A DNA stretch of 64,000 nucleotides, from contig DASYCE010000032.1 in the NCBI GenBank assembly GCA_036500345.1, forward strand, positions 124,001-188,000, given 5' to 3'. Position numbers and translations under genes: made by a program. The notes beneath the pieces were generated by a model. The model searched no databases, was not told the DNA's origin, and saw only the letters and a list, made by a program, of their open reading frames with translations. This DNA is from Gemmatimonadales bacterium (GTDB taxonomy: Bacteria > Gemmatimonadota > Gemmatimonadetes > Gemmatimonadales > GWC2-71-9). Shown here in pieces: positions 23,334 through 62,799 of this stretch; position 1 is the first letter of the stretch; the number at the start of each line of letters is the position of its first letter.

Positions 23334-26300
23334 ATGACGCAGCGTTGTTTGAGAAGTCTGGCCCGCGCACTGTTTGCGACAGTGGCGCTGGTCACCACCG
23401 CCGGGATTGCGTCGCTCAGCGCGCAGTCGACCGGCAAGGTGCAGGGCTACGTGAAAGACGCGCAGGGGCAGCCCGTGGCGAACGCCAGAGTGACGGTGGT
23501 CGGCACGGCGTTCAGCGCGCCGGTCAATGCCCAGGGGTACTACTTCATCGAGAACATCCCGGCAGGGACGTATTCGCTCTCGGCGAAGTTCATCGGGTAC
23601 AAGGAGAAGATCGTTGCGGGTCTCCGTGTCCTCGCGGGTCAGACGGTCAACCAGGATTTCCCGCTCGAGGCCCAGCCGGTCAACATCGCTGAACTCGTGG
23701 TGCAGACCTCCGCGGCGCAGAACGCGCTGGTCCCGCGCGACGAACCGACGACCAAGCAGGTCGTCACCGGCGACATGGTGGACAAGCTCCCGGTCGATCG
23801 TATCGGCCAGGCATTGGCACTCCAGCCCGGTATCGTCCAGGTGACGAGCTGCGCCACCAACTCGCCGTGCACGCCACTCTTCTCGGTTCGCGGCGGCCGC
23901 GTCGACCAGAACGCCACCTACATCGACGGCGTTCCGGTGCAGAACGGCATTCACACCGGCCAGGCGACGGCGACTGGCGGCAATGCGGTGGCAGGCGCAC
24001 CGCAGCTGCAGGTCGCGACCAACGGCTTCGAAGAAGCCGACGTGACGACCGGCGCCAACTCGGCGTCGTTCGGTAACGCGCAGGCCGGTATCATCAACAT
24101 TTCGACCCGCACCGGCGGCAGCAAGTTCACCGGCAATCTGTCGTACGAGACCGGCATGCTTGGCGGCGCGTACTACGGTCAGGGGAACAACAACTTCGCC
24201 GGTTCGTTCGGTGGTCCGATCACCAAGCGGCTGACCTTCTTCGCATCGGGCCGGCTCGAAGGCAACAATGCGCAGAACGGCGGCCCCTACGGCTGGCTCT
24301 TCCCGAGCTACTCGGCGGTCAGCATCGACACGACGTACCGGATCGCCAACGCGTCGAAGGTCGGTCCCGGCCTCAGCTCCGGTGTCACGGACAGCGTCGA
24401 CGTCAAGGTCTACAACTACGCCGTCACCGAGGGTCCGTGCAGCTCGTTCCAGGGGAGCAGCTCGACGTACGCTCCGATCGCGAACAACTACGGCGCGACC
24501 TGCCACGCCAATCAGTCGTACCAGAGCCCGAACACGAACTACTTCACGACCGACAAGCTGAACTACACCTTCGGTCAGGGTTCGCGTCTCGCGCTGAGCT
24601 ACCTCTATAGCGGCAACCAGCGTCGCAACACGCTCAGCGACGGGACGGCAACCGGCACGATCGATGGTTCGAACGTCGCCACGCTCAACTGGACCCAGAC
24701 GATCATCCGCCAGGCAAACCACCAGCTGACGCTCGATGCCTACATCTCGCGCCAGTGGAACAACACGACGGTTGGCAAGCTGACGCAGTCGTCGGAGTCG
24801 GCAACGCGGTCGTCGCCGCTGGGGATCATCACTCACAAGCTCGACTTCCGGATCAAGCCGTCGGATTTCCCGATCGACTCGACGCTGATCTACAACGTGC
24901 TGCTCAACAACGTCGGCCACCGGATCGGCCTCACCGATCCGAAGAACACCGGGCAGTACGGTGCCGTGCCGTCGTACACCGCGAACCTTCCGCCTGATGG
25001 CGTCTGCGGCTGCGCGGCAGGAGGCAACGGTGCCGATGACACGCAGCTCTCGTACGACATCGAGAATCGCTGGGTCGGCAAGGCCGATATCGACTTCCAG
25101 GCCGATCGCTACAACCGCCTCAAGATCGGCGGCGAATACACCGGCTACAACCTGACCGACTTCCAGAACTCGTCGACCGGTTCGACGACCTTCACCGGCA
25201 AGCCGGTTCGGTACGATGCCTACGCCGAAGATCATCTCGATCTCGGTGACGTCGTCCTCGTCGCCGGCGTCCGCTACGACTACTACTGGTCGAAGGCGTG
25301 GCGCTGGAACGAATTCCCGAACATCTCGTCGCGTGCGGTACCGGCCAACAGTGGCGGGCCGGCTCGGACGCTGACGCAGTTCGGCACCGACTCGCTGTTC
25401 TGCCCGGCCGGCCAGGCGCCAAGCGCCGACGCAGTCTGCGGCCTGGTGCAGGATCCGTCGCACAACTACGTGTCACCGCACATCCAGGTCTCGTTCCCGG
25501 TGACCGACAAGACCAACTTCCGGCTCTCGTACGCGCAGGATGTGGAAGCGCCGGACTTCGGTCTGATCTACGCGAATTCGCTCTCCGACATCAACACCAG
25601 CGGCCAGAACTCGCGTTCACGCTGGGGCCAGGACCTCGACTTCGGCAAGACGGTGGCCTTCGAGTTCGGCGCCCGTCACGCCTTCAGCGAAGACATGGTG
25701 CTCGACGTGGCGGTGTACAACAACGACATCGTTGCCGACCCGTCGTTCGCCTTCGAGCACCCGATCAATCCGCAGACGCTCGCGGGGCAGGTGCTGTACG
25801 AGGTCGAGAACACCGACTTCGGCAACACCCGCGGTATCGACGTCCGCCTCGACCGTCGTATCGGCAATTACTTCAACGGCTCGCTGGCGTACTCGTTCCA
25901 GGATTCGAAGAACACCGGTACCGATCCGTTCTCGTACCTCGGCTTCTTCGAGCCGCTGTCGGGCTTCACCGGGACGCCGCCGACTGCGGCGCTTCCGACC
26001 GGCACGTCGCGGCCGCACTCGTTGACTGCGCTCTTCAGCATCCAGCTCCCGGGCGATTGGGAGAAGGGGACGCTCCTCAACACGATCCTCAAGCGGACCG
26101 GCTTCTACGTGACCGGACGCATCGCATCGGGGCTGCCGTACACGCGCTGCAATCCGACTGACCCGGGCTCGGTGGGTGTCGTGACCGGTATCGTCAACGG
26201 CGCAAACCAGACCGGAACCTGCGGCGACCTTGGCGCAGCAGAAGGCTTCAACACGTCGCGGTTCCCGATGCTGAAGCAGCTCGACCTCCGGGCCACCAAG

Positions 26301-26738
26301 GACTTCCGGGTCGGCCGGTACCAGTTCACCGGCTACGTCGACGCGCGCAACCTGCTCAACCTGACCAACGTCGTCGGCGTCTTCTCGCAGACCGGCACGA
26401 CGAACTCGGGCGCGAACGCAGCGGTCAACTACACCAACGACTCGACCACTTTCGCCACCTTCGGCAAGACCACCGGGTTGTACAACGCAGCCGATGGCTC
26501 GTTGAACCTCCCGAAGACGATTGCCGGCTGCGGTGCGGTGAACAACGGGCAGGTATCGTTCGCGCCGGAATGCTTCTACTACATCCGGTCGGAACAGCGG
26601 TTCGGCAACGGCGACGGGGTATACACGATCGCCGAGCAGAAGGCTGCGTCGAATGCGAACAATGCCAAGATCAACAGCGTCTATGACTTTGTCACCGGTG
26701 GGCGAACGATCAGGTTCGGACTTGAAGTAAACTTCTGA
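23334..26738 (+). CDS. TonB-dependent receptor with carboxypeptidase-like N-domain
   Basis: The ATG at 23334 has GGAGG five bases upstream; the protein has 1134 residues. A signal peptide ends SLSA before Gln (predicted +1). A carboxypeptidase-regulatory-like Ig domain (about 35-120, GKVQGYVKDAQGQPVANARV) precedes a plug domain (FSVRGGRVDQNATYIDGVPV) and a long beta-barrel ending in RFGLEVNF with a terminal Phe. It imports a substrate across the outer membrane using TonB. No SusD-type partner gene follows. It heads a five-gene operon behind the promoter at 23104, so the substrate may be handled by those proteins. Confidence 0.93.
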   Translation: MTQRCLRSLARALFATVALVTTAGIASLSAQSTGKVQGYVKDAQGQPVANARVTVVGTAFSAPVNAQGYYFIENIPAGTYSLSAKFIGYKEKIVAGLRVLAGQTVNQDFPLEAQPVNIAELVVQTSAAQNALVPRDEPTTKQVVTGDMVDKLPVDRIGQALALQPGIVQVTSCATNSPCTPLFSVRGGRVDQNATYIDGVPVQNGIHTGQATATGGNAVAGAPQLQVATNGFEEADVTTGANSASFGNAQAGIINISTRTGGSKFTGNLSYETGMLGGAYYGQGNNNFAGSFGGPITKRLTFFASGRLEGNNAQNGGPYGWLFPSYSAVSIDTTYRIANASKVGPGLSSGVTDSVDVKVYNYAVTEGPCSSFQGSSSTYAPIANNYGATCHANQSYQSPNTNYFTTDKLNYTFGQGSRLALSYLYSGNQRRNTLSDGTATGTIDGSNVATLNWTQTIIRQANHQLTLDAYISRQWNNTTVGKLTQSSESATRSSPLGIITHKLDFRIKPSDFPIDSTLIYNVLLNNVGHRIGLTDPKNTGQYGAVPSYTANLPPDGVCGCAAGGNGADDTQLSYDIENRWVGKADIDFQADRYNRLKIGGEYTGYNLTDFQNSSTGSTTFTGKPVRYDAYAEDHLDLGDVVLVAGVRYDYYWSKAWRWNEFPNISSRAVPANSGGPARTLTQFGTDSLFCPAGQAPSADAVCGLVQDPSHNYVSPHIQVSFPVTDKTNFRLSYAQDVEAPDFGLIYANSLSDINTSGQNSRSRWGQDLDFGKTVAFEFGARHAFSEDMVLDVAVYNNDIVADPSFAFEHPINPQTLAGQVLYEVENTDFGNTRGIDVRLDRRIGNYFNGSLAYSFQDSKNTGTDPFSYLGFFEPLSGFTGTPPTAALPTGTSRPHSLTALFSIQLPGDWEKGTLLNTILKRTGFYVTGRIASGLPYTRCNPTDPGSVGVVTGIVNGANQTGTCGDLGAAEGFNTSRFPMLKQLDLRATKDFRVGRYQFTGYVDARNLLNLTNVVGVFSQTGTTNSGANAAVNYTNDSTTFATFGKTTGLYNAADGSLNLPKTIAGCGAVNNGQVSFAPECFYYIRSEQRFGNGDGVYTIAEQKAASNANNAKINSVYDFVTGGRTIRFGLEVNF

Positions 26739-26749
26739 CCCGGCCCGGA

Positions 26750-26775: not shown

Positions 26776-26809
26776 GTCCGGACGACTATTCAGACCCGAG
26801 GAATCATCA

Positions 26810-29800
26810 ATGCACGCACTGCGTAGTATGCGGAAACTTTCCGCCGGGGTTGCCTTGGCGGCGTTCGCGGCAGCACTCCTCCCCGGCACGGCCTCGGCCT
26901 GGCCGGCGCCGGGAGCGAAGCCACAATTCAAGCTCTTCGCTCGCGCCCTCGGATCGATCGGGGTCAACCGCGTCGAGCTCGGATTGGCGAGTCTGGGCAA
27001 CATCGGTGTTGACTCGTCGGGTCGCGGTACGACGCAGGGCGGCTTCTGGCCCCGCGGTACCATCGACAACTACATCTTCAACTCCGGTATTCAGGTCGCC
27101 GGCCAGATTCAGGGGACCAAGCCGACCAATCCGTGGGGCGGCGACACGGCGGGCGGCCTGTTCTTCGACGCCACCGGTCTCCATGAGCATTCCGAAGGTG
27201 TCGAGAACGTCTTCAACTCGGCGAACTCCGCCGACGTCGCGTCGTGGCCTTCGGACGCCTTCGTGCCGCAGGGCGACGCGGTCGCCGATCTGTACGCTAC
27301 GCCGCTGCAGGGATTGGTCAGCGCGTCGCAGGGCGACGTGCACTTCGTCGCGTGGGAAGGGAATCCGGCGCTCATCAACGGCCGCGCCCACCCACTCGGC
27401 ATTCTCGCCGACCACCGGCTCCTCGCGTGGAACTATCCGGCCGGCAACCAGGACGTCGTCTACGTCGTGGTGACGCTGTACAACGTCACCTCGGCCAACT
27501 GCTCGGATTACGCCGCCGCACGTGCCGGAATTCGAGACCTCCTCTGCGCCCAGGGGCAGAAGTTCCAGTCGCTCAACAACGCCAAATACGGCATTACGCT
27601 GCCGACCGGTGGCTACACCATCGGCCCGATGCTCATGGCGTATGCGGCTGATCCAGACGTCGGCAACGCCAGCGACAACTACGCCACGGTCAACCTGCCG
27701 TTCGCGATGGGGATGGCCTACGACGCGACGTTCGGCAAGGGGACCGGTGGGTGGTCGTTCGATCCGGCGATCTTCGCACCGCCGTTCTTCGCCGGCGTCG
27801 GCTTCGTCGGCATGAAGTACCTCAAGGGACCTGATGGCCCGGGGGCGATCCAGCTCTTCACCAACTCGGTGAACGGTGCCGGGAACGCCGACCCTGCCAA
27901 CACGACGATCCTCTACCGCATCCTCGCGGGGACGCCGACTCAGACCGATGGTTCATGCGATGTCCCGGGCGACCCGAAGGTCACCCACATCTGCTTCGTC
28001 AAGAAGGGAACGTTCACGGACATCCGGATGATCGAGTCGTCGAGCCCGCTCACGCTGGCGCCGGGTGAATTCCGTACGATCGTCGTCGCGCTGATCTTCG
28101 CACCGCCGGTGGCATTGCCGGGCTTCGTGCCGAACGCGACGACGAACGTTGATCCGGGTGATCCGACCTGGACCTCCTCGTCCGACTCGATGGTGAAGTA
28201 CAATGGTGCCAACCGGATCGACTCGCTGGCAGGGTTCGCCGGATACAACGGCGGATTGACCAATGGCGACGGCAGCCATCACGACCCGGTCCAGACCGAC
28301 TTCTCGGTGATCAAGGGTTCGGTGATGGCGAAGGCGCTGGTGGCGCAGGCCGTCTTCAACGCGAAATTCCTCCAGGAATTCGCGCCTGACGCACCGCAGT
28401 TCTTCCTGATTCCGGGTGACAAGCAGGTCACGGTCCTCTGGAAGCCGTCAGACACCGAAACGCTGGGCGATCCGTTCTTCGCCGTCGTCGGTTCGCCGCT
28501 GACGAAGGACGCGGACGGCAATTCCATTCCGAATCCGCTCTACGATCCGAACTATCGTCAGTTCGATGTTGAGGGGTACCGGATCTACCGCGGCCGCAGC
28601 GACTCGCCAACCGGCCTTCAGCTCCTGGCGCAGTTCGACTACGCCGGCACGACGTTCAAGGATTTCACCGGCACCGTGGTCAGCGGAAACTGTGCCCCGG
28701 AACTCGGCATCGAGACCGATTGCCCGGTGACCTTCCCGACGCCGACGAATCCGACGCATGCGGGAACGGCGCCGACCAAGTTTGGGACCTTCAACATCGG
28801 GCCGCAGCCCTCGGGCGCTCCGCTGATCTTTGAAGACCAGAGCTGCACGACCTGCCGCGTTCCGCTGGCAGGTGGGACGACGTCGCTCACCGTGACCGCC
28901 GATACGGCGGTCTCTGGTGCACTCGACGGCTCATTCCCCCCGCTCGCGGACACCGGTGTACCGTTCGTCTTCATCGACCGCCTCGGCGCCTGTCAGATCT
29001 GCGGCGTCGTGAACGGCATCAACTACTTCTACTCGGTCACTGCATTCGACGTGAACGCACCGGGCCACGGCCCGACGTCGCTCGAATCGGCGCGTGTCAC
29101 CAAGCAGGTCACGCCGCAAAGCGCGGCCGGGAACACGTCGTCAAGCGGCACCATCGCGGTGAGCGGGCTCAGCGGCCGCGGTGTCGCATTGACCGACACG
29201 ACGCAGCCGACGATTGATACCCTCACGGGCGAATTCTCGAAGAAGATGCCGATCAGCAACTCGGCCTCGCTCTCGGTCGGCATTCTCGTGACCCAGGTCC
29301 TCAAGACTGTCACGGCCACCGTCAAGCTCGACTCGATTCTGCTCAATACCGCTGCATCCGGCGGTGGTGGCAACGAAGTCTTCACCGAATACATGTCGGT
29401 GACGAATACGGCCGGGACGAGCGTATTCTCCATTCCCGCCACGATGAACGAAGCGGACTACGGCGGTGGTGCGACGACGACGTTCTCAGCCGGGTTCGGT
29501 GCGCTGGCAGTCGATTCCGCGTCGTCGAGCGTCTTCGGCGGCGGCAACGGGTTCTCGATCCCCGCAACCATGACCATCCACGTTCCCGGCGGCTACACCA
29601 CAGGGATCATGGGCCGTGGCTGCATCAACGGCGGTACCAGCGGGACGCCGTTCGCAACCAACCCCGCGCGTCTGTGCGCCTATAACGGACCGCGCTGGTT
29701 CATCGGCGACAACGAAACCACGGCCAATCCGAACAGCGACAACGGCGATGCCTTCAATGACGGTTCGCTGCCGGCAACGCTGAACAATGCAGGCGCGCTC

Positions 29801-30916: not shown

Positions 30917-32053
30917 ATGATTCGGTTCTCTGTTCTGAAGGGCGCTACTGCAGGCATGCTCCTCCTTGCTCCCGCCATTGCCGCGGCGCAGTCCACGACC
31001 GGCAATGACAACACCGGCTACGGCACTACTGCCGCCGAATTCCTTCTTCTTGGCGCCAACGCCAGGGGGATGGCGCTCGGTGGCGCCTATGCCGCGGTCG
31101 CAACCGACGTCGGCGGCCTCAACGCCAATCCTGGCGCCGTCGCGCTTCTCAAGCGACCGGCGATCCAGGGATCGCAACTGCAGTACGTCGGCGACACCAA
31201 GCTCGATTGGGGTGCAGTCGCACTCCCGTTCGGCGGCGGCTCGAGCGTCCTGGGATTCCAGATCGGGACCTTCGGCTTCTCCGACCAGCCGGTCTACACC
31301 GTTGGCGATCCGGAAGGCACGGGCGCCTTCTACTCGGTCAACGAAACTTTCATCGCCGGTACACTGGCGAAGAACTTTTCGGACCGATTCTCGGTTGGTA
31401 TCACAGCCAAGGGCGTGATCGATCACCTCGGTGACGTCAACGGCAGCGCGTTCGCCGTGGACTTCGGGACGCACTTCCATTCGCAGCTCGGGGGCAAGGC
31501 AGTGCAGTTCGCCTTCTCACTGTCGAACCTCGGCACCAACATGAGTTATTCCGGTGAAGGGCTGAATCAGAAGATCGACCGCGGCGCGACGCGCGATACC
31601 ACACCGGGCCAGGGCGGAATCGTTTCGCTCCCGGTCCCCGTCGGATTGCTCGCCTCGTCGTTCGGCCTTCCGACCCTCTTCCGGGTGGCACTCGCCTACG
31701 ATGTGGTCGAAACGAAGGGCGCCAAGCTGGCGCTGATGGGTGAATTCAACCAGATGCGGTCGAATCGCGGCGCCTTCGGTGGCGGTGCGGAGTTCGCGGC
31801 CGACCACATCGGTGGATCGGGATTCGGCGTGGCGCTGCGCGGGTCATACACCTACAACCCGTCGCTCAGCTACGGCAACACCGGCCTGGTCGGATACGTC
31901 GAGCCAAGCGATGACAAGAACGCCGGCATTGCCTACGGCGGAGGGGTCTGGCTCGCGTCGAAGGGTGGATTCCAACTCGGCTTCGATTACGCCTGGAAGC
32001 GGATCGGCGTGATCGGCGACGTGAACTTCTACACCATTACGCTCGGCTGGTAA
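30917..32053 (+). CDS. porV: PorV/PorQ family outer-membrane protein
   Basis: The protein has 378 residues and a signal peptide ending AIAAA before Gln. The N-terminal segment AAEFLLLGANARGMALGGAYAAVATDVGGLNANPGAVALL (about 37-76) is diagnostic of the PorV/PorQ (UPF0164) family. A beta-barrel ending ITLGW follows. In Bacteroidetes PorV shuttles type 9 secretion cargo from the SprA translocon to the surface. Here it directly follows a large protein with a type-A-like C-terminal domain. The symbol marks the family; whether it is functionally PorV or PorQ is not settled by sequence. Confidence 0.88.
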   Translation: MIRFSVLKGATAGMLLLAPAIAAAQSTTGNDNTGYGTTAAEFLLLGANARGMALGGAYAAVATDVGGLNANPGAVALLKRPAIQGSQLQYVGDTKLDWGAVALPFGGGSSVLGFQIGTFGFSDQPVYTVGDPEGTGAFYSVNETFIAGTLAKNFSDRFSVGITAKGVIDHLGDVNGSAFAVDFGTHFHSQLGGKAVQFAFSLSNLGTNMSYSGEGLNQKIDRGATRDTTPGQGGIVSLPVPVGLLASSFGLPTLFRVALAYDVVETKGAKLALMGEFNQMRSNRGAFGGGAEFAADHIGGSGFGVALRGSYTYNPSLSYGNTGLVGYVEPSDDKNAGIAYGGGVWLASKGGFQLGFDYAWKRIGVIGDVNFYTITLGW

Positions 32054-32117
32054 CGACACCCATGACGGGGATTCTGCCACGGGGCATTACGGCCGGGATT
32101 TGCAAGGGAGACAATCC

Positions 32118-33536
32118 ATGCTGATCGCTGCCGTACTTGCTGCCGCGCTCGCGAGCCAACAGGCTCCCGCGCCTGGCGGAATCCAGATGCGCGCCGTGCG
32201 GTTCTGGCTACCGGAAGCGCACAAGACAAGTGTGCTGACGATGGTCGAAGTGCCGTACTCGCTGACCACACCGGTCGGCACGGGGCCCGACGCCTACCTC
32301 GCATACCAGGTCGTGGTACGCGTCAAGGACGATGCGGGGAAGCTTCTCGACGCCGACCGGTGGACCAAGCACGCGGCTGCATCGTTGCGCACCGACAATG
32401 CATCCGCCATCGAGCAGATGAGTTTCGGAGTGCTCCCGGGGCACTACTGGGTTCAGGTCGAAGTCACCGACTCCGCAACCGGGCGCGTGACCACGGACAG
32501 CGTTCACTTTGACGGGTACATGCAGTCGCCGGGAGCATCGGACCTCCTCCTGGCAAACCGGATCCGCGTCGTTCCGTCGGGAGACACTGCCCTCGATCCG
32601 GGGGAAATCGCTCGAGGGAACTATCGGTTCGTGACGGCGCCGCAAGTACATGTCGACGTGTCGCAACCGGTGGTCGGATTCCTGATGGAAGCGTATTCGC
32701 CCGATTCGACCAGTGCCACGCTCACGCTCAAGGTCGCGATGGCCGACGGCAAGGAGATCGCGACACTGATTCCGGTGCAGAAGTCGATCCCGGCGGGCGG
32801 CGGCGTGATTGCGTCGCAGTTCTCGGTGGAGGGGCTTCCGGCGGGGTCGTACCTGATCAAGGCGGCGCTCGCCGTCAATGGCCAGACGATCGACCGCCAG
32901 GCATCGTTTGTGGTCAACGCCATCGAGCCGTCGTTGCAGCGTGAAATCGCGGTCAACAACGCATCACGCGGACTGGACGAGTCGTATTTCAACTCGATGC
33001 CCGAAGATTCGCTCGACGCCGCGGCGGAAGAACTCCAGATCCTTCCGGAAGTGACCAGGCGCGATCTCGAGCCGTACAAGCGCGACGAGCTCACCCTGGC
33101 CGCGAAGCGCCGTTTCCTGATCGAGTTCTGGGCCAAGCGCGACAACAACAAGGCGACACCGGAGAACGAAGCGCGGATCGCATTCTACAATGCGATCGCG
33201 TACGCCAACGCCCATTACGCGGTGCGATATGTCCCGGGGTGGAAGACGGCGCGCGGCCGGGTCTTCGCCAAGTACGGTTCGCCAACCGATTCGCTGAACG
33301 ACAACCTGGGTGGCCAGAGCAAGGTTCGATATCTCGTCTGGCGGATTACCCGGTCAAAGGATCGCTGGTTCATCTTCGGCGATCGGGACAACAACGGCAA
33401 CTACGTCCTGCTCCGTTCCAACGAGACATCGGAGCCGGGGACGCCAGGGTGGCGCGAGCTCATCGACCCGCAATCGGTCATGGATATCGCGAGCTGGTTG
33501 GGATTGCCGCGGGCCTATTTCAACAACGACAACTAG
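32118..33536 (+). CDS. GWxTD-domain secreted protein
   Basis: The ATG at 32118 is chosen because AAGGGAG lies seven bases upstream; this gives 472 residues. A short signal peptide ends ALAS before Gln-Gln. The C-terminal third contains LAAKRRFLIEFWAKRD and the family motif GWKTARGRVFAKYGSP (about 374-389), in which the fourth Asp of GWxTD is Ala. The family is found in Gemmatimonadota and related groups and has no proven function. The gene is the fourth member of the surface operon, 64 bases after porV. Confidence 0.85.
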   Translation: MLIAAVLAAALASQQAPAPGGIQMRAVRFWLPEAHKTSVLTMVEVPYSLTTPVGTGPDAYLAYQVVVRVKDDAGKLLDADRWTKHAAASLRTDNASAIEQMSFGVLPGHYWVQVEVTDSATGRVTTDSVHFDGYMQSPGASDLLLANRIRVVPSGDTALDPGEIARGNYRFVTAPQVHVDVSQPVVGFLMEAYSPDSTSATLTLKVAMADGKEIATLIPVQKSIPAGGGVIASQFSVEGLPAGSYLIKAALAVNGQTIDRQASFVVNAIEPSLQREIAVNNASRGLDESYFNSMPEDSLDAAAEELQILPEVTRRDLEPYKRDELTLAAKRRFLIEFWAKRDNNKATPENEARIAFYNAIAYANAHYAVRYVPGWKTARGRVFAKYGSPTDSLNDNLGGQSKVRYLVWRITRSKDRWFIFGDRDNNGNYVLLRSNETSEPGTPGWRELIDPQSVMDIASWLGLPRAYFNNDN

Positions 33537-47205: not shown

Positions 47206-47239
47206 TCTGGCTCAAGTCGCGGTAGCTTTGGACGTTACC

Positions 47240-50200: not shown

Positions 50201-53200
50201 CACTTTCCGACGCTCTGCGAGGATTCGCTCGGCACGACGATCTCGTTCTTCCCGTGGGGCGATCTCGGTGCGCGATGCTCGCGACACAACGGCGTGGCGG
50301 ACGCCGAGGATCTCGATGGCGACAACGTCCTCGATGCCCAGGGTTCCGCTGACAATGTCTTCCGGTATGTCGTCGACCTGCACGCCGATTCAGTCCGCAG
50401 CCATGTCATCGTCGACCCGACCTCGGGGGCGAGCGCCTCGTGGACGATCTATCGGGTGCCGCTCCACAACGCCACCGACACGATCGGCTCGCCCGACATT
50501 CATCTGGTCAAGCAGCTGCGGATGACGTTCGTCGCGCCGGGGACGACCGCCGATGCCGAACTCCCGGTGCGATTTGCGCTGGCGTTGATGCAATTCACCG
50601 GCGCGGCGTGGGCGGCACGCGCCGACCGGCCGATCGCCACATTGTCGGGGCCGACCGCAGGATTTTCCGGTTCGGTCCTGGTGGGGAGCGTCTCGACGCA
50701 GGACTCGGCGTCGTCGGGGCTGGGGTACACCTCGCCGCCCGGGATCGGCGACGCCGCGGCGACCGTGTCCGTGACGCAGACGCAGGCGGCAGAGCAGATC
50801 AACGAGACGTCATTGCGGATCCAGGTGGCGTCGCTCGACAGCGGTCAGCGCGCGGAAGCGTATACGCGGCTCGCGAGCGGAACGCGAAACCTCCTCGCCT
50901 ATCGGGAACTTCGCGTCTGGATGCACGGTCACGGTCCCGGCTGGGACAACGGACAGCTGCAGGCGTATGTGAAGGTGGGGAGCGACGCCTACAACTTCTA
51001 CCTGTACCGCGCGCCGGCGCACACGACGACGTGGGATCCGGAGATGCTGATCGACTTGCAGCAGTGGCAGGACCTGCGCGATCAGATCGAGAACGCCCGA
51101 TTGCGCGGCGCGTTGCCTGACCCGGCGGCAGCGCGCGCGTGCGGTGGCGATTCGACGGCGTACGTCGCCTGCAACGGCAACTACATGGTCCAGGTTCGCG
51201 ATCCGCAGGTCAACCCGCCGAATCTCGCCGCCGTGCAGGAACTGGCGGCAGGGATCTACGATCCGGGCCCGAGCGCCATTCCGATCGCGCAAACCGAACT
51301 CTGGGTCGACGATATCCGTGTCTCGCAGCCGGTGTCGTCCATGGGGGTCGCCGGTGCATTCACCGGCCATGTCAGCGCGTCGGATGTTGCCACCTTCGAC
51401 GTGGCCGGCGTGTACGAGAATGGCCAGTTTCACCTGATGGGACAGGATCCGACGTACCAGAACACCTCGTCGCTGACCACCAATGCCACGGTGCATTTCG
51501 ACAAGTTCCTGTCGCCGCGGCTCTGGCTCCGGATTCCGTTCAACATCGCGAGCTCATGGGGATGGGTGGCGCCGCAGCTGATCAGCGGTACCGACGTCAA
51601 CGCGACCGGTATCGATGGGCTCCGGCTGCCGCGCAACGATGCGACGACCTGGTCGTTGAGCGTGAGCCATGTGTCGCACGTCGGCGAAGCGAACCTGACT
51701 CGGCTGATGTTCAACCCGATCTCGTTCAACCTCAACGGATCCGGCGCGACGAACATCTCGTCGCTCTCGGATGTCACGTCGTCGTCGTGGAGCGCGACGG
51801 TCGGATACTTCCTGAACAATCCACGCCGCACCTACCGGCTGCACCTCGGAGGGCTGACCAGCGGACTGCCGCGCTGGCTCCGCCAGAGCGCCGCGGGCCA
51901 GGGAGTGACGAACGCCGCGTTCGCGCCATGGCCGACGGCGATCCAGTTGCAGTCGTCGCTGTCGCACACGATGGGCGACATCGCGTCGTTTTCCGTCCCG
52001 ATCCGGACGCTGGCCGATACCATTCTCAAGCCGGTGACGTCGGAACAGTTTCTCTGGCGCAACCTGGCGGGAATGAACTGGGATCCGCTCGGCATCCTGC
52101 ATTTCACCAGCAGCTGGTCAAGCACGCGCGATCTGCGCCAGTACAGCGACTCCACCACCCTTGGCCGCGTGGTGAACGCGTCGCATCAATCGCTGTTCGG
52201 AACCGACGTCGGTGTTGAGCGCGACCGCACCATGGCCAATACCTTCGGCTTTGCGCCGAGGATTTCGAGCTGGCTCGCGCCGCAGGTGACCGTCGGCACC
52301 AACTTCATCCTGTCGCGCTCCCTGACGACCCGCAATCCGGTGCAGATCGTCGGCGACACGGCGGGTGCCTACATCCTGCCGCAGACGCTCGACAATTCGC
52401 GCGCCACCGAATTCCGGCTGTCGATGGATCCGAGGATCCTCGCGCAGCGGATCTTTGGTGATTCGGGCGGATTGTCCAAGGCGCTGGTCCGCGTCCGGCC
52501 GATCGAATTCTCGCGCCGCTCGACGATCAGCTCGACGTACGACCTCGCGACGTTCTCCCCGGACCTGTCGTACCAGCTCGGTCTCGGGTCATTCGATTCG
52601 TTCCTGCACCACCAGGGGCAGGACGCGATTGGCGCGGCGAAGGGGACCACCACGAATGTGACGGCATCGGTCGATCTGCCGTCGGGCTTCTCGGCGCAGC
52701 TTGCCTATTCGGCGAGTACCAACGACCAGTCGCAGCGGCTGAGCACCGGCGCATTTCTCACCACGACCGGCACGACGCAGAGCTGGCCGCAGGGGCGGTT
52801 CAACTGGTCGCACGTCTTTGCCTCGGGGCCGCTCCTCCAGATGGGGGCAAGTTCGGGGGTGCAGCGTGATCACTCGACGTCGATCTCTCCCTTCACCGAC
52901 GGCACGGTCAGCAGCGCGGCCCAGACCAGCAGCCGTGTGACGCCGAGCCTGACCCTCGCGTTCCGGAACAACGTCCAGTTCATCGCCAGCGGCGAGAACG
53001 ACCAGAGCAGCACGGTCTCCGACGGGAACATCACGCAGACGACGTCGTTGATGCTGAACGGCACGCTGTCGTGGAGCACCAGGTTGCCGAGCTTCATCTC
53101 CGCGACCCGGCGCAGCATCACGCTCAACTTCACCGTGAGCCAGAACAACAACAATTCCTGCATCCAGCGGAGCACCGATTCGACCTGTGTCCCGTATTAC

Positions 53201-53374
53201 GACCTGCGGCGGTTCGAATTCCAGTCGGGATTTGCGGCGTCGCTGCAGCACGCGATCCGGACCGGCTTCCAGTTGAGCTACGTGCTGAACAACGTCGTCT
53301 CGCTCGGCCAGCCGACCCAGACCATCACGCTCAATGTATTCTTCAGCGTACCCCTCAACAGTCTGGGGATGTAG
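47240..53374 (+). CDS. sprA: SprA-like giant outer-membrane translocon protein
   Basis: The protein is about 2044 residues. A signal peptide region (FVARLALFVAVAVAG) ends SLPAAA before Gln. The body matches SprA, the pore of the type 9 secretion system: SIPSNNFGISALAVFG, YEQGRIFWVVDPRTIPGYP, YLEEFENNND and WLMGSLPQSN are in the expected order. SprA forms a 36-strand barrel in Bacteroidetes. The start is unsure: TTG 47240 is used here, while GTG 47270 and TTG 47228 are alternatives, and none has a good ribosome-binding site. The M28 gene starts on the base after the stop. Other T9SS core genes (GldK-N, SprE) are not in the window. Confidence 0.88.
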   Translation: MQTNRPNLRFVARLALFVAVAVAGRSLPAAAQGESRVVPADSAGFLNRSLLSQYVTSIPTLEPRLLRGPLLHDPARRLEPQVLSAFDSALAATAALVTTGVRHQSVMRRLMIRSLAVDTAAQDTHHGLFGLSPNTADVLFDGNWEAQLSSTKQRNLSCTPAQAAQLSSGCFGGFGAPKIDNSVQLRSAGVFAQRFHINIDFDSKRDYAAGNIVSGYYQGLEDEKLQRVNIGTVQFIAPPSRFLTASIPSNNFGISALAVFGPVSVQAIAATQKGSVVADKHYVVGSTTVEPQDRLVRDLDYEQGRIFWVVDPRTIPGYPAVDILNSSAISLPTDQQPAEVRIYRYVSANQVAGANSNYDGVTATGLNGSEHVGPLRWRLLKPNVDYWIDPSGLWFILKTRIDPNDNLAVSYTTKAGTQVGSIPVTDNPAARDSVRLIYLPNRGPASPIFPYEMRQAYRVAGTSLVRSSLTASILVANSERPANSPGTFLSLLGLAVPADPAALDVDNRLFPRVRDAGASQVIQDALLIFPSAQPFSSTGLSTAERNDSLYATPEYLLLSQGPPSKFQLHLQYNAAGGAGNSITLDAVQITEGSEHLTVNGQPLVRNVDYTIDYITGRVTFLNPTALYGNGTADVEASFEQRGLFAVAPTSIGGLTATWNLGLRKSISFAGLYQAEATGYTRPEIGYEPRASLLLGMTTDLQWDTPAITRLFNHFLPKASTAPSSVQVTGELAISRPDPNRSGDAYLEEFENNNDIKVPASQNFWLMGSLPQSNAGVESTIPQGFDSTNAVQLILQNLVPSTHDSITQLTPTDIDPTVALTKSSTPTIEPVLWTTLHADTAGGIVDFQSRSHWTQPARPGQPRFRSMTTALSATGTDLSRNDYFEFALYQSSDHPIDKAQMKIVIDLGRVSEDELSIAPTSFHVLGPGDAIPKGFAVGDTIYTGRQYIGSGRLDTEKSSFGTWNATTDDNGILADRPDSLLGPNGSVVHFPTLCEDSLGTTISFFPWGDLGARCSRHNGVADAEDLDGDNVLDAQGSADNVFRYVVDLHADSVRSHVIVDPTSGASASWTIYRVPLHNATDTIGSPDIHLVKQLRMTFVAPGTTADAELPVRFALALMQFTGAAWAARADRPIATLSGPTAGFSGSVLVGSVSTQDSASSGLGYTSPPGIGDAAATVSVTQTQAAEQINETSLRIQVASLDSGQRAEAYTRLASGTRNLLAYRELRVWMHGHGPGWDNGQLQAYVKVGSDAYNFYLYRAPAHTTTWDPEMLIDLQQWQDLRDQIENARLRGALPDPAAARACGGDSTAYVACNGNYMVQVRDPQVNPPNLAAVQELAAGIYDPGPSAIPIAQTELWVDDIRVSQPVSSMGVAGAFTGHVSASDVATFDVAGVYENGQFHLMGQDPTYQNTSSLTTNATVHFDKFLSPRLWLRIPFNIASSWGWVAPQLISGTDVNATGIDGLRLPRNDATTWSLSVSHVSHVGEANLTRLMFNPISFNLNGSGATNISSLSDVTSSSWSATVGYFLNNPRRTYRLHLGGLTSGLPRWLRQSAAGQGVTNAAFAPWPTAIQLQSSLSHTMGDIASFSVPIRTLADTILKPVTSEQFLWRNLAGMNWDPLGILHFTSSWSSTRDLRQYSDSTTLGRVVNASHQSLFGTDVGVERDRTMANTFGFAPRISSWLAPQVTVGTNFILSRSLTTRNPVQIVGDTAGAYILPQTLDNSRATEFRLSMDPRILAQRIFGDSGGLSKALVRVRPIEFSRRSTISSTYDLATFSPDLSYQLGLGSFDSFLHHQGQDAIGAAKGTTTNVTASVDLPSGFSAQLAYSASTNDQSQRLSTGAFLTTTGTTQSWPQGRFNWSHVFASGPLLQMGASSGVQRDHSTSISPFTDGTVSSAAQTSSRVTPSLTLAFRNNVQFIASGENDQSSTVSDGNITQTTSLMLNGTLSWSTRLPSFISATRRSITLNFTVSQNNNNSCIQRSTDSTCVPYYDLRRFEFQSGFAASLQHAIRTGFQLSYVLNNVVSLGQPTQTITLNVFFSVPLNSLGM

Positions 53375-54283
53375 ATGCTCGGTCGAATCCGCTGTGTTGC
53401 TCTTGCGACGCTCGCCACCCTCATCGGTTGCGGGGCGGGGAGCCCGCCGGCCAAGGAGTTCAACGGCAAGGCGGCGCTCGAGTACCTGACGACGCAGGTG
53501 GCGTTCGGTCCGCGGATCCCCGGAAAACCGGGCCACGCCGCGATGCTGACGTGGCTCGATTCGATGGCTCGCGTGCGCGCCGAGAGCGTCACCGTGCAGC
53601 GGTGGTGGCATCACACGGCGTCGGGCGATTCGATTCCGCTGGCCAACGTGCTGGCGCAGTTCAATCCGAAGGCGACCCAGCGCGTCCTCTATGTTGCGCA
53701 CTGGGATACCCGCCCGCACGCCGACAACGACAAGACCGACAAGAACGGCGTGATGCCCGGCGCGGATGACGGCGGTTCGGGAGTGGCGATCCTCCTCGGA
53801 GTGGCCGATGCGCTCAAGAAGGCGCCGCCGACCGTTGGCGTCGATCTCCTCTTCGTCGATGGCGAAGACTACGGCGATTTTGGTCCGCCGATGGTCGACG
53901 TGCTTCTCGGTGCGGCGTATTACGCCAAGCATCAGCTCGCGCCGTCGCCGATGTTCGCCGTGCTCTGGGACATGGTCGGACACAAGGATCTCAGGATTCC
54001 GCAGGAACAGTTTTCGACCATCGCCGCTCCGGACCTCGTGAGCCGCGTCTGGAAGATCGCCGACCAGATGGGGTACGGTCACATCTTTACCGATGAGAAA
54101 TACGGCGGGATCACCGACGATCACATACCACTGATCGATGCCGGCATTCAGGCGATCGACATCATCGACATCAACTATCCGTACTGGCACACCACGCAGG
54201 ATACGCCCGACAAGGAGTCGGTCGAGAGTCTCGAGGCGGTGGGCAACGTCGCCGTCGGCGTGATCCGTCGCGCCGGGAAGTGA
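53375..54283 (+). CDS. M28-family lipoprotein, glutaminyl-cyclase-like
   Basis: The 302-residue protein starts on the base after the sprA stop. Lipobox TLIGC gives Cys19. The M28 fold segments are AHWDTRP (108-114), PGADDGGSGVAILL with Asp131, FVDGEDYG with Glu164, DDHIPLIDAG and YWHTTQD with His272. The last two resemble glutaminyl-peptide cyclotransferases, where a Trp-His-Thr and a single zinc (Asp, Glu, His) form the site. The His of human QC after DDHIPF is not conserved (DII here), so aminopeptidase activity is the alternative. Its neighbour sprA and the many +1 glutamines in this window favour the cyclase reading. Confidence 0.82.
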   Translation: MLGRIRCVALATLATLIGCGAGSPPAKEFNGKAALEYLTTQVAFGPRIPGKPGHAAMLTWLDSMARVRAESVTVQRWWHHTASGDSIPLANVLAQFNPKATQRVLYVAHWDTRPHADNDKTDKNGVMPGADDGGSGVAILLGVADALKKAPPTVGVDLLFVDGEDYGDFGPPMVDVLLGAAYYAKHQLAPSPMFAVLWDMVGHKDLRIPQEQFSTIAAPDLVSRVWKIADQMGYGHIFTDEKYGGITDDHIPLIDAGIQAIDIIDINYPYWHTTQDTPDKESVESLEAVGNVAVGVIRRAGK

Positions 54284-59283: not shown

Positions 59284-60078
59284 ATGCGCGTTTCGCGTTG
59301 TGTCGTCGCGGCAATCGCTCTTGGCCTGGCCGCCGCCCCGCTGGCGGCGCAGGACAACTACGAGATCCAGGTGTATGGCTCCGAGCTCGTCGCCCCCGGC
59401 GCGACGATGGTCGAGCTCCACAGCAACTACACCAACCATACCGGCGTCGACATCGGGCCAGGGATGGTGTCGACGTATCACGCGCTGCACGAGACGGTCG
59501 AGATCACCCACGGCTTCAATTCGTTCTTCGAACTGGGGTACTACAACTTCACGTCGATCAATCCCGATGGCGGATTCAACTGGGTCGGCACCCACCTGCG
59601 GCCCCGGTTCTCGGTCCCCGCCAGCTGGCACTGGCCGGTCGGCGTGTCGATCTCCCAGGAGTTCGGCTACCAGCGGAAGGAATTCTCCCCGGATACCTGG
59701 ACGTACGAATTCCGTCCGATCATCGACCAGAAGCTCGGGCGCTTCTACTGGGCGGTCAATCCATCACTGGAGCTCTCGCTCAAGGGCGAGGGGCAGCACA
59801 ACGGCTTCGAATTCTCGCCCAATGTGCAGGTGGGCCTGGACGTGAGTCGCCGGGTCAACCTGGCGCTGGAGTATTACGGCAACTTCGGGCCGCTGTCAGG
59901 GTTCGATCCGGTGTCGCAGACTGAGCAGGAGCTCTTCCCGGCGATCAACTACGATTTCGGGCCGGACTGGGAGTTCAACCTCGGCGTCGGGATGGCGCTC
60001 ACCAGCCACACCGATGTGGTCGGTCTCAAGATGATCATCGGGCATCGATTCGGGATCACCAACCGGAAAACGCCGTAG
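59284..60078 (+). CDS. Outer-membrane beta-barrel-like protein
   Basis: The ATG at 59284 gives 264 residues. The signal peptide ends APLAA before Gln. The rest alternates aromatic and charged residues in short strands (HETVEITHGFNSFFELGYYNF, VGVSISQEFGYQRKEF) and lacks enzyme motifs. This fits a small barrel or periplasmic beta protein. The N-terminal part YEIQVYGSE is reminiscent of Gemmatimonadota proteins, but I cannot name a family. It lies between the pilus genes and an M1 peptidase, with its own short upstream region. Confidence 0.75.
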   Translation: MRVSRCVVAAIALGLAAAPLAAQDNYEIQVYGSELVAPGATMVELHSNYTNHTGVDIGPGMVSTYHALHETVEITHGFNSFFELGYYNFTSINPDGGFNWVGTHLRPRFSVPASWHWPVGVSISQEFGYQRKEFSPDTWTYEFRPIIDQKLGRFYWAVNPSLELSLKGEGQHNGFEFSPNVQVGLDVSRRVNLALEYYGNFGPLSGFDPVSQTEQELFPAINYDFGPDWEFNLGVGMALTSHTDVVGLKMIIGHRFGITNRKTP

Positions 60079-60123
60079 CCATCCAGTATTAGTTTTTTCC
60101 CCGACTCTTTCGGAAAGTTTTCC

Positions 60124-62097
60124 ATGTTCCGCATGGCTTGTGTCGCGTCATGTATCCTGGCGATGCCGCTTGGTGCCCAGGTGGTGCAAGGGCTTCCTCC
60201 CAATCCGCCGCTTCGGCCATCGGAGGCGGTGGCCGACACGTCGATCTTCGCGCCACTGGTCCTGCCGAGCGCGAACCTGATCCGGACGGGGAGCGGGGCT
60301 CCCGGCGCGCGCTACTGGCAGAATCATGCCGATTACGACATCGCGGCGACGCTCGACACGGCGGCGAAGACGCTGCACGGGCAGCTCACCCTTCGCTACA
60401 CCAACAACTCGCCCGATACGCTGCAGTACATCTGGATCCAGACCGAACAGAACGCGTTCAAGGCGAATTCACTGAATTCGTACATCTTCCCCGCCGATTC
60501 CCGATTTGGCGCCAAGAATTTCGAGGGCGGGGACGTCATCGAACACTTCAATCAGGTCCTTCCCGGTGCCACGCGGACCGCGGCGGGTCGGCACCTCCCG
60601 CTCCACCTGCGCGACAACGAAACAGTCACCAAGGTTGATCTCGCCGAACCGCTCGCGCCGGGACACACCGCCACGTTCGATGTCGCCTGGCACTTCCTGA
60701 TTCCCGAGCACGGCGCCGACCGGATGGGTCGCGACGGCTCGCTCTACGAACTGGCGCAGTGGTATCCCAGAATGTGCGTCTACGACGACGTCCGCGGCTG
60801 GAATACCGAGCCGTATCTCGGCCAGGGCGAGTTCTATCTCGAATATGGTGATTTCAACGTCGCCGTGACCGTCCCCGCCGGCTACATCGTCGCCGCAACC
60901 GGCACGCTGCAGAATGGCCCCGAGGTGTTGACGCCCACCGAGATCTCGCGGTTGGCGGCGGCGTCCAAGTCGGCGACGCCGGTCCACATCATCACCGCCG
61001 ACGAACTGAAGAGCGGTTCCGCGCGCCCACGGGCCACGGGGACGATGACGTGGCGCTTTGCTGCGAAGGATGTGCGCGACGCCGTCTGGGCCGGATCGCC
61101 GGACTACCAGTGGGACGCGTCGAGCTACAAGGGTGCGATGGCGAACGCGTATTTCCGTCCGTCCGCGGCGTTCAACTGGAACGATGCGGCCGACCAGGCC
61201 CGCATGTCGATCATGGAATACTCGGAACGCTGGTATCCATATCCGTGGCCGCAAATCTCCGCGGTCGAGGGACCGATCAGCGGGATGGAGTATCCGATGC
61301 TCGCGATGGAGACGGTGAGTCGCGACAAGTACGATCTCTACAACGTGGTCACCCACGAGATCGGCCACATGTGGTTCCCGATGCTCGTGGGGTCGAACGA
61401 GCGGGAGTACATGTGGCAGGACGAAGGGTTCAACACCTTCATCAATACCTTCTCCGAAGCTCGCCGCTACCCCGAAAAGGGCGATCAGATGGCGCGCGCC
61501 GCCGAACAGCGCACCGAGATCGAGTATGTGATGCGCGTCGGTGCTGACCAGCCGGTGATGATCAATCCTGACCGGATCGACCCGAACCTGCTGGGGATCT
61601 CGGCATACGACAAACCGAGCGTCGGCCTGCAGCTTCTGCGGCAGGAGATCCTCGGGCCGGCCACGTTTGACGACGCCTTCCGCACCTACGTCAAGCGCTG
61701 GGCGTTCAAGCATCCTACCCCTGCCGATTTCTTCCGCACGATGGAGGATGTGAGCGGTCGCCGGCTCGACTGGTTCTGGCGCGAATGGTTCATCGAGAAC
61801 GCGCGCTTCGACCAGGCGATCGACACGGTGGCCATCCGGCAGTCAGGCGATACCAGTCAGGTCGCCGTGATGTACGGCAACCGGATGCGCGGCGTGCTGC
61901 CGATTCACGTCCGGTTCACCTTCGCGGACAGCTCGAAGCAGGACTTCACCTATCCGGCGGAGGTGTGGAGCACCAACACCAGCCACTACGTGCGCGAGTA
62001 CGCGTTCGTCGGCAAGAAAGTCGCGAAGATCGAGCTCGATCCCGATCACCTGCTGGTGGATGTGGAACGGACCAACAACTCCTGGACGCCGAAGTAG
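60124..62097 (+). CDS. M1 family zinc aminopeptidase, secreted
   Basis: The 657-residue protein has a signal peptide ending PLGA before Gln. The exopeptidase motif GMEYP starts at residue 387. The zinc site HEIGH is at 411-415, with the third ligand Glu434 (QDEGF) in the HExxH-x18-E spacing. TYVKRWAFKHPTPADFFRTM is typical of the C-terminal part. It removes N-terminal residues from peptides in the periplasm or outside the cell. A strong bidirectional terminator follows at 62121. Confidence 0.94.
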   Translation: MFRMACVASCILAMPLGAQVVQGLPPNPPLRPSEAVADTSIFAPLVLPSANLIRTGSGAPGARYWQNHADYDIAATLDTAAKTLHGQLTLRYTNNSPDTLQYIWIQTEQNAFKANSLNSYIFPADSRFGAKNFEGGDVIEHFNQVLPGATRTAAGRHLPLHLRDNETVTKVDLAEPLAPGHTATFDVAWHFLIPEHGADRMGRDGSLYELAQWYPRMCVYDDVRGWNTEPYLGQGEFYLEYGDFNVAVTVPAGYIVAATGTLQNGPEVLTPTEISRLAAASKSATPVHIITADELKSGSARPRATGTMTWRFAAKDVRDAVWAGSPDYQWDASSYKGAMANAYFRPSAAFNWNDAADQARMSIMEYSERWYPYPWPQISAVEGPISGMEYPMLAMETVSRDKYDLYNVVTHEIGHMWFPMLVGSNEREYMWQDEGFNTFINTFSEARRYPEKGDQMARAAEQRTEIEYVMRVGADQPVMINPDRIDPNLLGISAYDKPSVGLQLLRQEILGPATFDDAFRTYVKRWAFKHPTPADFFRTMEDVSGRRLDWFWREWFIENARFDQAIDTVAIRQSGDTSQVAVMYGNRMRGVLPIHVRFTFADSSKQDFTYPAEVWSTNTSHYVREYAFVGKKVAKIELDPDHLLVDVERTNNSWTPK

Positions 62098-62120
62098 CGG
62101 TTCGCTGACGGGATGGCCAG

Positions 62121-62165
62121 AAACGAAGAGGGATCTCGATCGCCGGTCGAGATCCCTCTTCGTTT
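62121..62165. terminator. Bidirectional terminator
   Basis: AAACGAAGAGGGATCTCGA (62121-62139) and TCGAGATCCCTCTTCGTTT (62147-62165) are perfect 19-base arms with a 7-base loop. It separates the convergent M1 and Met/Arg-rich genes and ends in a T run on both strands. Confidence 0.9.
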
Positions 62166-62181
62166 GTGCGGTAGCTGCTGG

Positions 62182-62799
62182 TCAACGATCGATCGGCTGG
62201 GCGGCGGAACTGTCTGGCCGGGCGCGGCGCCGCATGCCGAGCGAGTCGCCGAACGGGCGCCGTCCGCCGCGGCCGCGGAACGCCATCGCCGAATCACCGG
62301 GCCGCCCGCGGCGCAGCATCGCTCCGTTTCCCATCGACGGGGCGCCGAACCGTCCTCGGGGCCCGAGTGCTGCAGGGCCGCGCATCATGCCTGGACGCAT
62401 CAGTCCGCGCCGCATCTCCATCGGTGCACCTCGCATCGCCATCGGTGGCCTGCGGTTCGCCATCGCATTGCGTCGCATCGCCATGCCGCCGCGTCGTGGT
62501 CCGCGAAAGCGCGCCATCCGGGCCCGCATCACGCCGTTGGCGCGGCCGAACCTCCGTCCATGCCAGCCGGCGGCGTCGAGCTCCTTGCGCATCCGGTCGC
62601 GGGTGCGCCGAAGCGATGCGCGCTGATTGTCGAGCTCCTGCTGATACCGTTGCCGGATCGCGTCAAAGCGCTTGGCCGAGTCGGCGCTCGACCGTGGCGC
62701 TGCGGCGCGGGCTCTCGGCGCGGGACGAGCCGGCACCTGCGCCGTGAGAGGAACTGCAAGAAAGGTTGCTGCTGCCATCACCATCCACGCGTTGCGCAT
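62182..62799 (-). CDS. Secreted Met/Arg/Gly-rich protein
   Basis: The 205-residue protein has a signal peptide ending VPLTA before Gln. After a helical, coiled-coil-like region (RFDAIRQRYQQELDNQRASL) come about 100 residues rich in Met, Arg, Gly and Pro, with many short MR, MAMR and RRG units. Such tails can bind metal ions or nucleic acid. It is not a clear member of the Spy/CpxP family because no LTxxQ motif is present. The role is unknown. The base composition is biased but the frame is clean. Confidence 0.72.
   Translation of the reverse strand: MRNAWMVMAAATFLAVPLTAQVPARPAPRARAAAPRSSADSAKRFDAIRQRYQQELDNQRASLRRTRDRMRKELDAAGWHGRRFGRANGVMRARMARFRGPRRGGMAMRRNAMANRRPPMAMRGAPMEMRRGLMRPGMMRGPAALGPRGRFGAPSMGNGAMLRRGRPGDSAMAFRGRGGRRPFGDSLGMRRRARPDSSAAQPIDR

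What the first reader, a model, noticed from the sequence alone, without database searches (positions are those of the whole stretch)
23334..62799. Q-rule: eight of nine signal peptides put glutamine at the predicted +1 site
By eye, signal peptidase I sites are followed by Gln in the receptor at 23334 (SLSA/Q), PorV (IAAA/Q), GWxTD protein (ALAS/Q), receptor at 40778 (TAMA/Q), SprA (PAAA/Q), barrel-like protein 59284 (PLAA/Q), M1 peptidase (PLGA/Q) and the Met-rich protein 62799 (PLTA/Q). The only exception is the 1345-residue protein (ASA/W). Glutamine is not common enough for this to be chance. The same bias is known in Bacteroidetes, where it feeds pyroglutamate formation; I know of no description for Gemmatimonadota.
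Basis: partly seen in the sequence, partly recalled or inferred. Interest (0 to 1): 0.82.

Follow-up and report, generated by a model that had tools for sequence, protein, structure and literature searches.

The report
Glutamine-capping rule outside Bacteroidetes
In Gemmatimonadota bacteria, as in Bacteroidetes, many exported proteins appear to begin with glutamine once the signal peptide is cut off, and the enzyme that would seal that glutamine is encoded in this same stretch of DNA, next to the gene for a protein-export channel.

Summary
The nine junctions exist. A signal-peptide scorer blind to the +1 residue ranks the named Gln site first in only 3 of the 7 Gln genes it could score. The bias nevertheless holds beyond the window. 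In a 406-kb sample of the same genome, 35 of 45 predicted SPI substrates carry [AVSTILG]x[AGS]Q near the signal-peptide junction. Controls: 12 of 44 (E. coli plus S. meliloti pSymB), 17 of 30 (Bacteroidota loci), 19 of 24 (named Gemmatimonadota loci). PorV orthologues keep it in 20 of 20, the window's own included.

Window 53375-54283, abutting sprA, encodes a type II glutaminyl cyclase lipoprotein with its active-site residues present. Of 121 genomes of the phylum, 85 have type II, 42 type I, 114 at least one. Two Q-rule papers call it Bacteroidetes-specific and do not mention Gemmatimonadota.

Against a simple story, genomes with no cyclase detected keep the Gln bias (52 of 84 proteins). Pyroglutamate itself is inferred. 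Verdict: a known rule in a phylum where I found no report of it, plus a sprA-cyclase gene pair found in several phyla.

The parts
23334..23423 (+). signal peptide of receptor, SLSA/Q (Gln codon 23424-23426)
   Evidence: Gln site rank 4 of blind sites
26810..26899 (+). signal peptide of 1345-residue protein, TASA/W, the exception
   Evidence: W site rank 1; weak T9SS sorting tail (below cut-off)
30917..30988 (+). signal peptide of PorV/PorQ-family protein, IAAA/Q
   Evidence: rank 2; orthologues keep the junction motif in 20 of 20, own included; family hit
32100..32156 (+). signal peptide of GWxTD protein, ALAS/Q (weakest site)
   Evidence: rank 5; ALA/SQQ scores higher; GWxTD hit
40778..40858 (+). 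signal peptide of TonB-dependent receptor-like protein, TAMA/Q
   Evidence: rank 1
47270..47332 (+). signal peptide of SprA, PAAA/Q, Gln codon at 47333; true start uncertain (47183-47270)
   Evidence: site not listed by the scorer
47270..53374 (+). sprA, type IX secretion outer-membrane translocon (start uncertain)
   Evidence: TIGR04189, 439.9 bits against a cut-off of 200
53375..54283 (+). type II (animal-type) glutaminyl cyclase, 302 aa, lipobox LIGC at residues 16-19; start codon directly abuts the sprA stop
   Evidence: best structures are P. gingivalis, T. forsythia, Parabacteroides and Bacteroides enzymes; D132, E164, D165, D199, H272 present
59284..59349 (+). signal peptide of barrel-like protein, PLAA/Q
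   Evidence: rank 2
60124..60177 (+). signal peptide of M1 peptidase, PLGA/Q
   Evidence: rank 1; homologues keep the junction motif in 19 of 27 scored, own included
62740..62799 (-). signal peptide of Met-rich protein, PLTA/Q
   Evidence: rank 1

Best explanation
Gemmatimonadota follow a Q-rule like that of Bacteroidetes. Signal peptides are selected so that signal peptidase I exposes Gln (sequence statistics: shown on samples). A membrane-anchored periplasmic glutaminyl cyclase then closes that Gln to pyroglutamate, giving a blocked N-terminus that aminopeptidases cannot attack (inferred from homology and from published P. gingivalis work). In this genome the enzyme is the type II cyclase lipoprotein at 53375-54283, the only type II copy found at E <= 0.001; no type I copy was found at E <= 1e-10. 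In other lineages a type I (plant-type) cyclase takes its place. Translation of the cyclase coupled to sprA is inferred from the abutting stop and start.
For: Gln at the junction: own genome 35 of 45, named Gemmatimonadota loci 19 of 24, Bacteroidota positive control 17 of 30, negative controls 12 of 44. Unsupervised +1 estimate for Gln: 0.55 (bootstrap 0.37-0.70) in the own genome, 0.17 (0.05-0.29) in controls, 0.50 in Bacteroidota and 0.49 in named Gemmatimonadota. Homologue conservation: PorV 20 of 20, M1 19 of 27 with the junction motif, own proteins included. Enzyme: phmmer E 4e-48 to 6qql, the P. gingivalis cyclase; model pLDDT 85.7; Foldseek TM 0.83/0.91 to 7cjg. D132, D165, H272 match the zinc ligands PgAsp149, PgAsp183, PgHis299 and E164 the human Glu201 counterpart (motif mapping by me, residue roles); all are invariant in 14 of 14 aligned proteins. 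Lipobox pattern in 28 of 30, own included. Distribution: type II only 72, type I only 29, both 13, neither 7 of 121 genomes, echoing the two cyclase lineages reported in Bacteroidetes.
Against: Genomes with no cyclase detected keep the bias: pooled 52 of 84 proteins by motif and 0.40 (0.28-0.51) by the unsupervised estimate, so Gln does not track the enzyme. On the strictest measure (blind top site) pooled type II genomes give 27 of 79 against 8 of 44 in controls, only p = 0.045; type I (11 of 48, p = 0.38) and neither (25 of 84, p = 0.11) are not significant by that measure. The blind top site is followed by Gln in only 11 of 20 PorV and 10 of 27 M1 homologues. Single genomes are thinly sampled: G013 1 of 4, G109 1 of 3, G059 0 of 1 by motif. 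G079 (type I only) is weak: 0.24 (0.06-0.43), motif 12 of 23. Trp271 of the substrate pocket is kept in 8 of 14 aligned cyclases, His in the other 6 (counted by hand). Type I cyclase also occurs in 3 of 14 control genomes, Caulobacter, Deinobacterium and Corynebacterium, so its presence alone proves nothing. No activity or mass-spectrometry data.
Confidence: 0.75

Rival explanations
1. Gln at +1 is favoured by signal peptidase I itself, or by export, and cyclisation is incidental; the cyclase serves other substrates.
For: Genomes without a detected cyclase keep Gln. Proteobacterial controls already show 8 of 44 Gln at blind top sites.
Against: 114 of 121 genomes carry a cyclase and the two unrelated types largely replace each other, which suggests a needed activity. 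Published P. gingivalis work reports the cyclase essential and lower protein abundance on Gln to Asn change (PMC10653852, passages).
Confidence: 0.17
2. The 53375-54283 protein is an ordinary M28 zinc aminopeptidase.
For: Pfam reports only Peptidase_M28; NCBIfam reports only weak aminopeptidase or desuccinylase hits below cut-off.
Against: The best sequence and structure matches are cyclases, some deposited as peptidases and since proposed for renaming; it has the Asp (D165) reported as specific to bacteroidal cyclases and the Trp before His reported as shared with animal cyclases and Tyr in aminopeptidases.
Confidence: 0.07
3. The Gln pattern is an artefact of picking sites by eye in Ala-rich signal peptides.
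For: The blind scorer ranks the named Gln site first in only 3 of 7 scorable Gln genes.
Against: pSymB, treated identically, gives 6 of 29 by motif; shifted windows give 12%; PorV orthologues keep the motif in 20 of 20.
Confidence: 0.02

Closest known systems
Bacteroidetes Q-rule (Bochtler et al. 2018, PMC5837995; Szczesniak et al. 2023, PMC10653852)
   Same: Gln at +1 in many SPI substrates; type II cyclase lipoprotein; type I cyclase in other lineages; few species with both
   Different: Different phylum; sprA and cyclase genes adjacent here; several genomes keep the Gln bias without a detected cyclase; pyroglutamate not yet measured
P. gingivalis and T. forsythia type II glutaminyl cyclases (6qql, 7cjg, 6qro)
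   Same: Fold, about 35% identity, Asp-Asp-His zinc set, Glu base, lipobox
   Different: Trp before the zinc His is replaced by His in 6 of 14 aligned Gemmatimonadota proteins
Non-Bacteroidetes type II cyclases with solved structures (7d1b Fimbriiglobus ruber, 7d18 Acidobacteriales bacterium)
   Same: Bacterial type II cyclases outside Bacteroidetes were already known structurally
   Different: No Q-rule data seen for them here
High-Gln outliers named by Bochtler et al. (Ignavibacterium album, Chloroherpeton)
   Same: High Gln at +1 outside Bacteroidetes
   Different: Reported as scattered outliers with no obvious pattern, not as a phylum-wide rule with the enzyme

Membership tests
Q-rule (as defined in Bacteroidetes) | about half or more of SPI substrates with Gln at +1 | tested here: met
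   0.55 unsupervised, but its interval 0.37-0.70 reaches below half; any admissible site 29 of 45; motif 35 of 45; blind top site alone only 17 of 45. Bacteroidota scored the same way: 13 of 30 blind, although the published mean is 71%
Q-rule (as defined in Bacteroidetes) | glutaminyl cyclase encoded in the genome | tested here: met
   window 53375-54283; 114 of 121 genomes of the phylum have type I or II
Q-rule (as defined in Bacteroidetes) | cyclase is a lipoprotein | tested here: met
   LIGC lipobox; lipobox pattern in 28 of 30 loci, own included; pattern only, no predictor
Q-rule (as defined in Bacteroidetes) | exposed Gln is cyclised to pyroglutamate | not testable with these tools
   needs N-terminal proteomics
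Q-rule (as defined in Bacteroidetes) | confined to Bacteroidetes | tested here: not met
   the bias is present in Gemmatimonadota samples
Type II glutaminyl cyclase | M28-like fold closest to cyclases | tested here: met
Type II glutaminyl cyclase | zinc ligands Asp/Asp(Glu)/His and catalytic Glu and Asp | tested here: met
   D132, D165, H272, E164, D199, invariant in 14 of 14; residue roles, mapped by motif; D199 as the human Asp248 counterpart is my inference
Type II glutaminyl cyclase | Trp before the zinc His | tested here: met
   W271 in the window protein; only 8 of 14 in the alignment
Type II glutaminyl cyclase | single zinc and cyclase activity | not testable with these tools
   needs purified enzyme
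Type IX secretion system | SprA translocon | tested here: met
   439.9 bits against a cut-off of 200; 88 of 121 genomes at E <= 1e-10, 86 over the cut-off
Type IX secretion system | GldKLMN/PorKLMN motor and PorU | not tested
   not searched

The most novel reading that the evidence does not exclude
The Q-rule is not a Bacteroidetes invention. It is an old trait of a wide group (Gemmatimonadota, KSB1, Marinimicrobia, Calditrichota, Bacteroidota) that arose beside the SprA translocon, where a sprA-cyclase gene pair is still kept, so that N-terminal capping was originally part of type IX export. Where the known cyclases were lost, an unrecognised third kind of cyclase, or spontaneous closure, maintains the rule.
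Probability: 0.2. Interest if true: 0.78.

Novelty: new member of a known kind. Interest (0 to 1): 0.6.

Why it matters
Two papers present the Q-rule as specific or exclusive to Bacteroidetes. Showing it across another phylum, with the enzyme, changes where and why the rule arose. It turns a question left open there (is the coincidence with type IX secretion meaningful?) into a testable one through the sprA-cyclase gene pair. It also offers natural genomes without a detected cyclase in which to ask whether Gln or its cyclisation is what is selected. Practically, signal-peptide predictors and N-terminal proteomics searches for Gemmatimonadota should allow pyroglutamate.

Tried and rejected
A first scanner tried only starts in the first 60 codons of the longest ORF and missed several window genes; it was replaced. 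Codon training on the longest ORFs failed in some GC-rich genomes, giving no signal peptide in G069 and G059 and one in G079; it was replaced by composition-guided training. Simple correlation 'cyclase present = high Gln' was tested and not supported: neither-genomes are close to the others. Cyclase absence in the 7 neither-genomes was rechecked with a profile and with PF05096 at loose thresholds: the profile gave matches in 5 of 7 (best 1.6e-14, partial, in G092; none in G034 and G009), which I take for M28 peptidases without having tested it, and PF05096 gave one match below cut-off. A strict link of cyclase to type IX secretion was considered and rejected: 22 genomes have type II cyclase without a SprA match and 25 the reverse. 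The E. coli control is small (15 proteins), so pSymB was added (29); whether S. meliloti has a cyclase was not checked.

Rows dropped before counts: proteins with a lipobox-like pattern or a further TM segment were removed everywhere (own genome 72 to 45). Loci with too few training ORFs were skipped. The Bacteroidota and named Gemmatimonadota loci were all fetched around a cyclase gene, so they are not random samples. In one search, PorV used 20 of 22 matches (two partial ones left out) and 3 of 30 M1 loci had no scored signal peptide; both sets include the window's own protein, and two M1 N-termini (L291, L292) are identical over the stretch shown.
Full report
What was claimed and what is there. 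The window carries the nine signal peptides described (SprA junction). Eight have Gln after the junction; the 1345-residue protein has Trp. It places 16 of 18 recalled cleavage sites exactly. With it the named site ranks first in 40778, M1, 62799 and the Trp protein, second in PorV and 59284, fourth in 23334 and fifth in the GWxTD protein; SprA's site was not listed. So the eight-of-nine count is partly a matter of choice.

Is there a bias beyond choice? Yes. I sampled 20 stretches of the same genome plus the window (406 kb). Of 45 predicted SPI substrates, 17 have Gln after the blind top site (38%, against 3.9% Gln in the mature regions), and 29 have Gln after some admissible site. An unsupervised estimate of the +1 residue gives Gln 0.55 (0.37-0.70). 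Negative controls treated identically (E. coli 15, S. meliloti pSymB 29) give 8 of 44, 10 of 44 and 0.17 (0.05-0.29). The motif [AVSTILG]x[AGS]Q near the junction is in 35 of 45, against 12 of 44 in controls, 17 of 30 in Bacteroidota loci and 19 of 24 in named Gemmatimonadota loci; shifted windows in the own genome give 12%. Bacteroidota give 13 of 30 by blind top site, although the published mean is 71%, so the blind count probably underestimates, or my loci are not typical. Of the 10 own-genome proteins without the motif, several look like membrane anchors or cytoplasmic starts, one is the GWxTD protein from a later start, and others look like real signal peptides without Gln (my reading of the list).

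Is it selected? In PorV orthologues from the order (20 of 61 genomes matched), the residues around the cut vary but the junction motif with Gln is present in 20 of 20 proteins used (20 of 22 matches; own included). In M1 homologues from the phylum it is present in 19 of 27 scored of 30 loci. The blind top site itself is followed by Gln in 11 of 20 and 10 of 27.

The enzyme. The gene at 53375-54283, whose ATG directly follows the sprA stop, encodes a 302-residue protein with a lipobox. Its best solved relatives are the P. gingivalis and T. forsythia glutaminyl cyclases (E about 4e-48 to 7e-48; names). A model with mean pLDDT 85.7 matches 7cjg at TM 0.83/0.91. The zinc ligands and general base described for PgQC (PMC7948796, passages) map by motif to D132, D165, H272 and E164, all invariant in 14 of 14 aligned proteins, including the Asp that replaces human Glu202. 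Trp271 is present here but His in 6 of 14. One copy was found in this genome. Pfam alone would have called it M28.

Distribution. Type II cyclase: 85 of 121 genomes at E <= 1e-10. Type I (PF05096): 42 of 121. Both 13, only II 72, only I 29, neither 7; Fisher p about 1e-11, not corrected for kinship. This mirrors the statement for Bacteroidetes that the two types segregate by lineage with few species holding both (PMC5837995, section 17).

What does not fit. Genomes with no cyclase detected keep the bias: 52 of 84 by motif, 0.40 (0.28-0.51) by the unsupervised estimate. By blind top site alone only the type II pool differs from controls (27 of 79 against 8 of 44, p = 0.045); type I (11 of 48) and neither (25 of 84) do not. 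G079 is weak at 0.24 (0.06-0.43). So Gln and the known enzymes are not tightly coupled. Late loss, spontaneous closure, a missed enzyme, or a peptidase preference are all open.

Link to type IX secretion. SprA was found in 88 of 121 genomes; 63 have both SprA and type II cyclase. Reading places by hand, in 43 of the 63 they lie on one contig and strand within 4 kb; in 2 they are far apart on one contig (G068, G074); in 16 they are on different contigs, which in broken assemblies does not always exclude adjacency; in 2 the SprA place was not listed (G011, G112). All 43 belong to families f1, f2, f3, f4 and f8; none of the f5 or f9 genomes is among them. In named loci with at least 2.5 kb upstream of the cyclase, a SprA match ends within 3.5 kb upstream in 15 of 26 Gemmatimonadota, 3 of 3 KSB1, 5 of 5 Marinimicrobia, 1 of 2 Calditrichota, 1 of 3 Zixibacteria and 2 of 13 Bacteroidota, and in 0 of 5 Armatimonadota, 0 of 4 Poribacteria and 0 of 1 each of Glassbacteria, Ignavibacteria, Cloacimonadota, Sericytochromatia and an unclassified bacterium. 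In Zixibacteria loci L127 and L140 SprA matches also lie upstream but end further away. Twenty-two genomes have type II cyclase without a SprA match. The pair is therefore widespread but not obligatory.

Other phyla. Blind Gln at +1 in the cyclase loci of other phyla is uneven and the samples are tiny: KSB1 3 of 6, Armatimonadota 4 of 9, Marinimicrobia 6 of 16, Calditrichota 2 of 6, Poribacteria 1 of 2, Zixibacteria 1 of 7, Glassbacteria 0 of 5, Cloacimonadota 0 of 2. By motif, Armatimonadota, Marinimicrobia and a KSB1/Calditrichota/Zixibacteria/Ignavibacteria pool do not differ significantly from controls.

Literature. [quoted passage not shown] it does not mention Gemmatimonadota. PMC10653852 (passages) says 'Exclusively in the Bacteroidetes phylum'. 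On type IX secretion, PMC4793230 (passages) found it only in Bacteroidetes, but PMC11285876 (passages) lists Gemmatimonadetes among phyla where it may be present, so SprA here is not new. Searches joining Gemmatimonadota with pyroglutamate, glutaminyl cyclase or N-terminal glutamine, and SprA with glutaminyl cyclase, gave no paper that by its listing describes this (one search listed 20 of 22 papers and 20 of 39). The library lacks most subscription journals.

Judgement. A known rule, extended to a phylum in which I found no report of it, with the enzyme in the same window. Pyroglutamate formation and protection from aminopeptidases are inferred.

Noticed in passing
26810-30847: The one exception to the Gln pattern is a 1345-residue protein whose C-terminus weakly matches the T9SS sorting tail (E 3.2e-4, 20.6 bits against a cut-off of 23), so it may be a type IX cargo.
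   Followed up: no
L091, L092, L099, L100, L104 upstream of 10001: In these Gemmatimonadota loci an lptF match begins within about 400 bases upstream of the cyclase, in the place where sprA stands elsewhere, suggesting loss of sprA with retention of the cyclase.
   Followed up: partly
L110, L121, L124, L134, L135, L137, L142, L160: Close type II cyclase relatives are encoded in Armatimonadota, KSB1, Poribacteria and Marinimicrobia; tiny samples there give blind Gln at +1 in 4 of 9, 3 of 6, 1 of 2 and 6 of 16, while Zixibacteria (1 of 7) and Glassbacteria (0 of 5) do not.
   Followed up: partly
G034, G033, G095, G119 (no window coordinates): Genomes 90-96% complete with no recognised type I or II cyclase that keep the junction Gln motif (22 of 37, 6 of 12, 7 of 11, 9 of 13); a place to look for an unknown cyclase.
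   Followed up: partly
62182-62799: Short exported protein very rich in Met, Arg and Gly with no Pfam match.
   Followed up: no
32100-33536: The GWxTD protein seems to start at TTG or at an ATG 18 bases later (32118, chosen by the scanner); the start choice affects its predicted cut.
   Followed up: no
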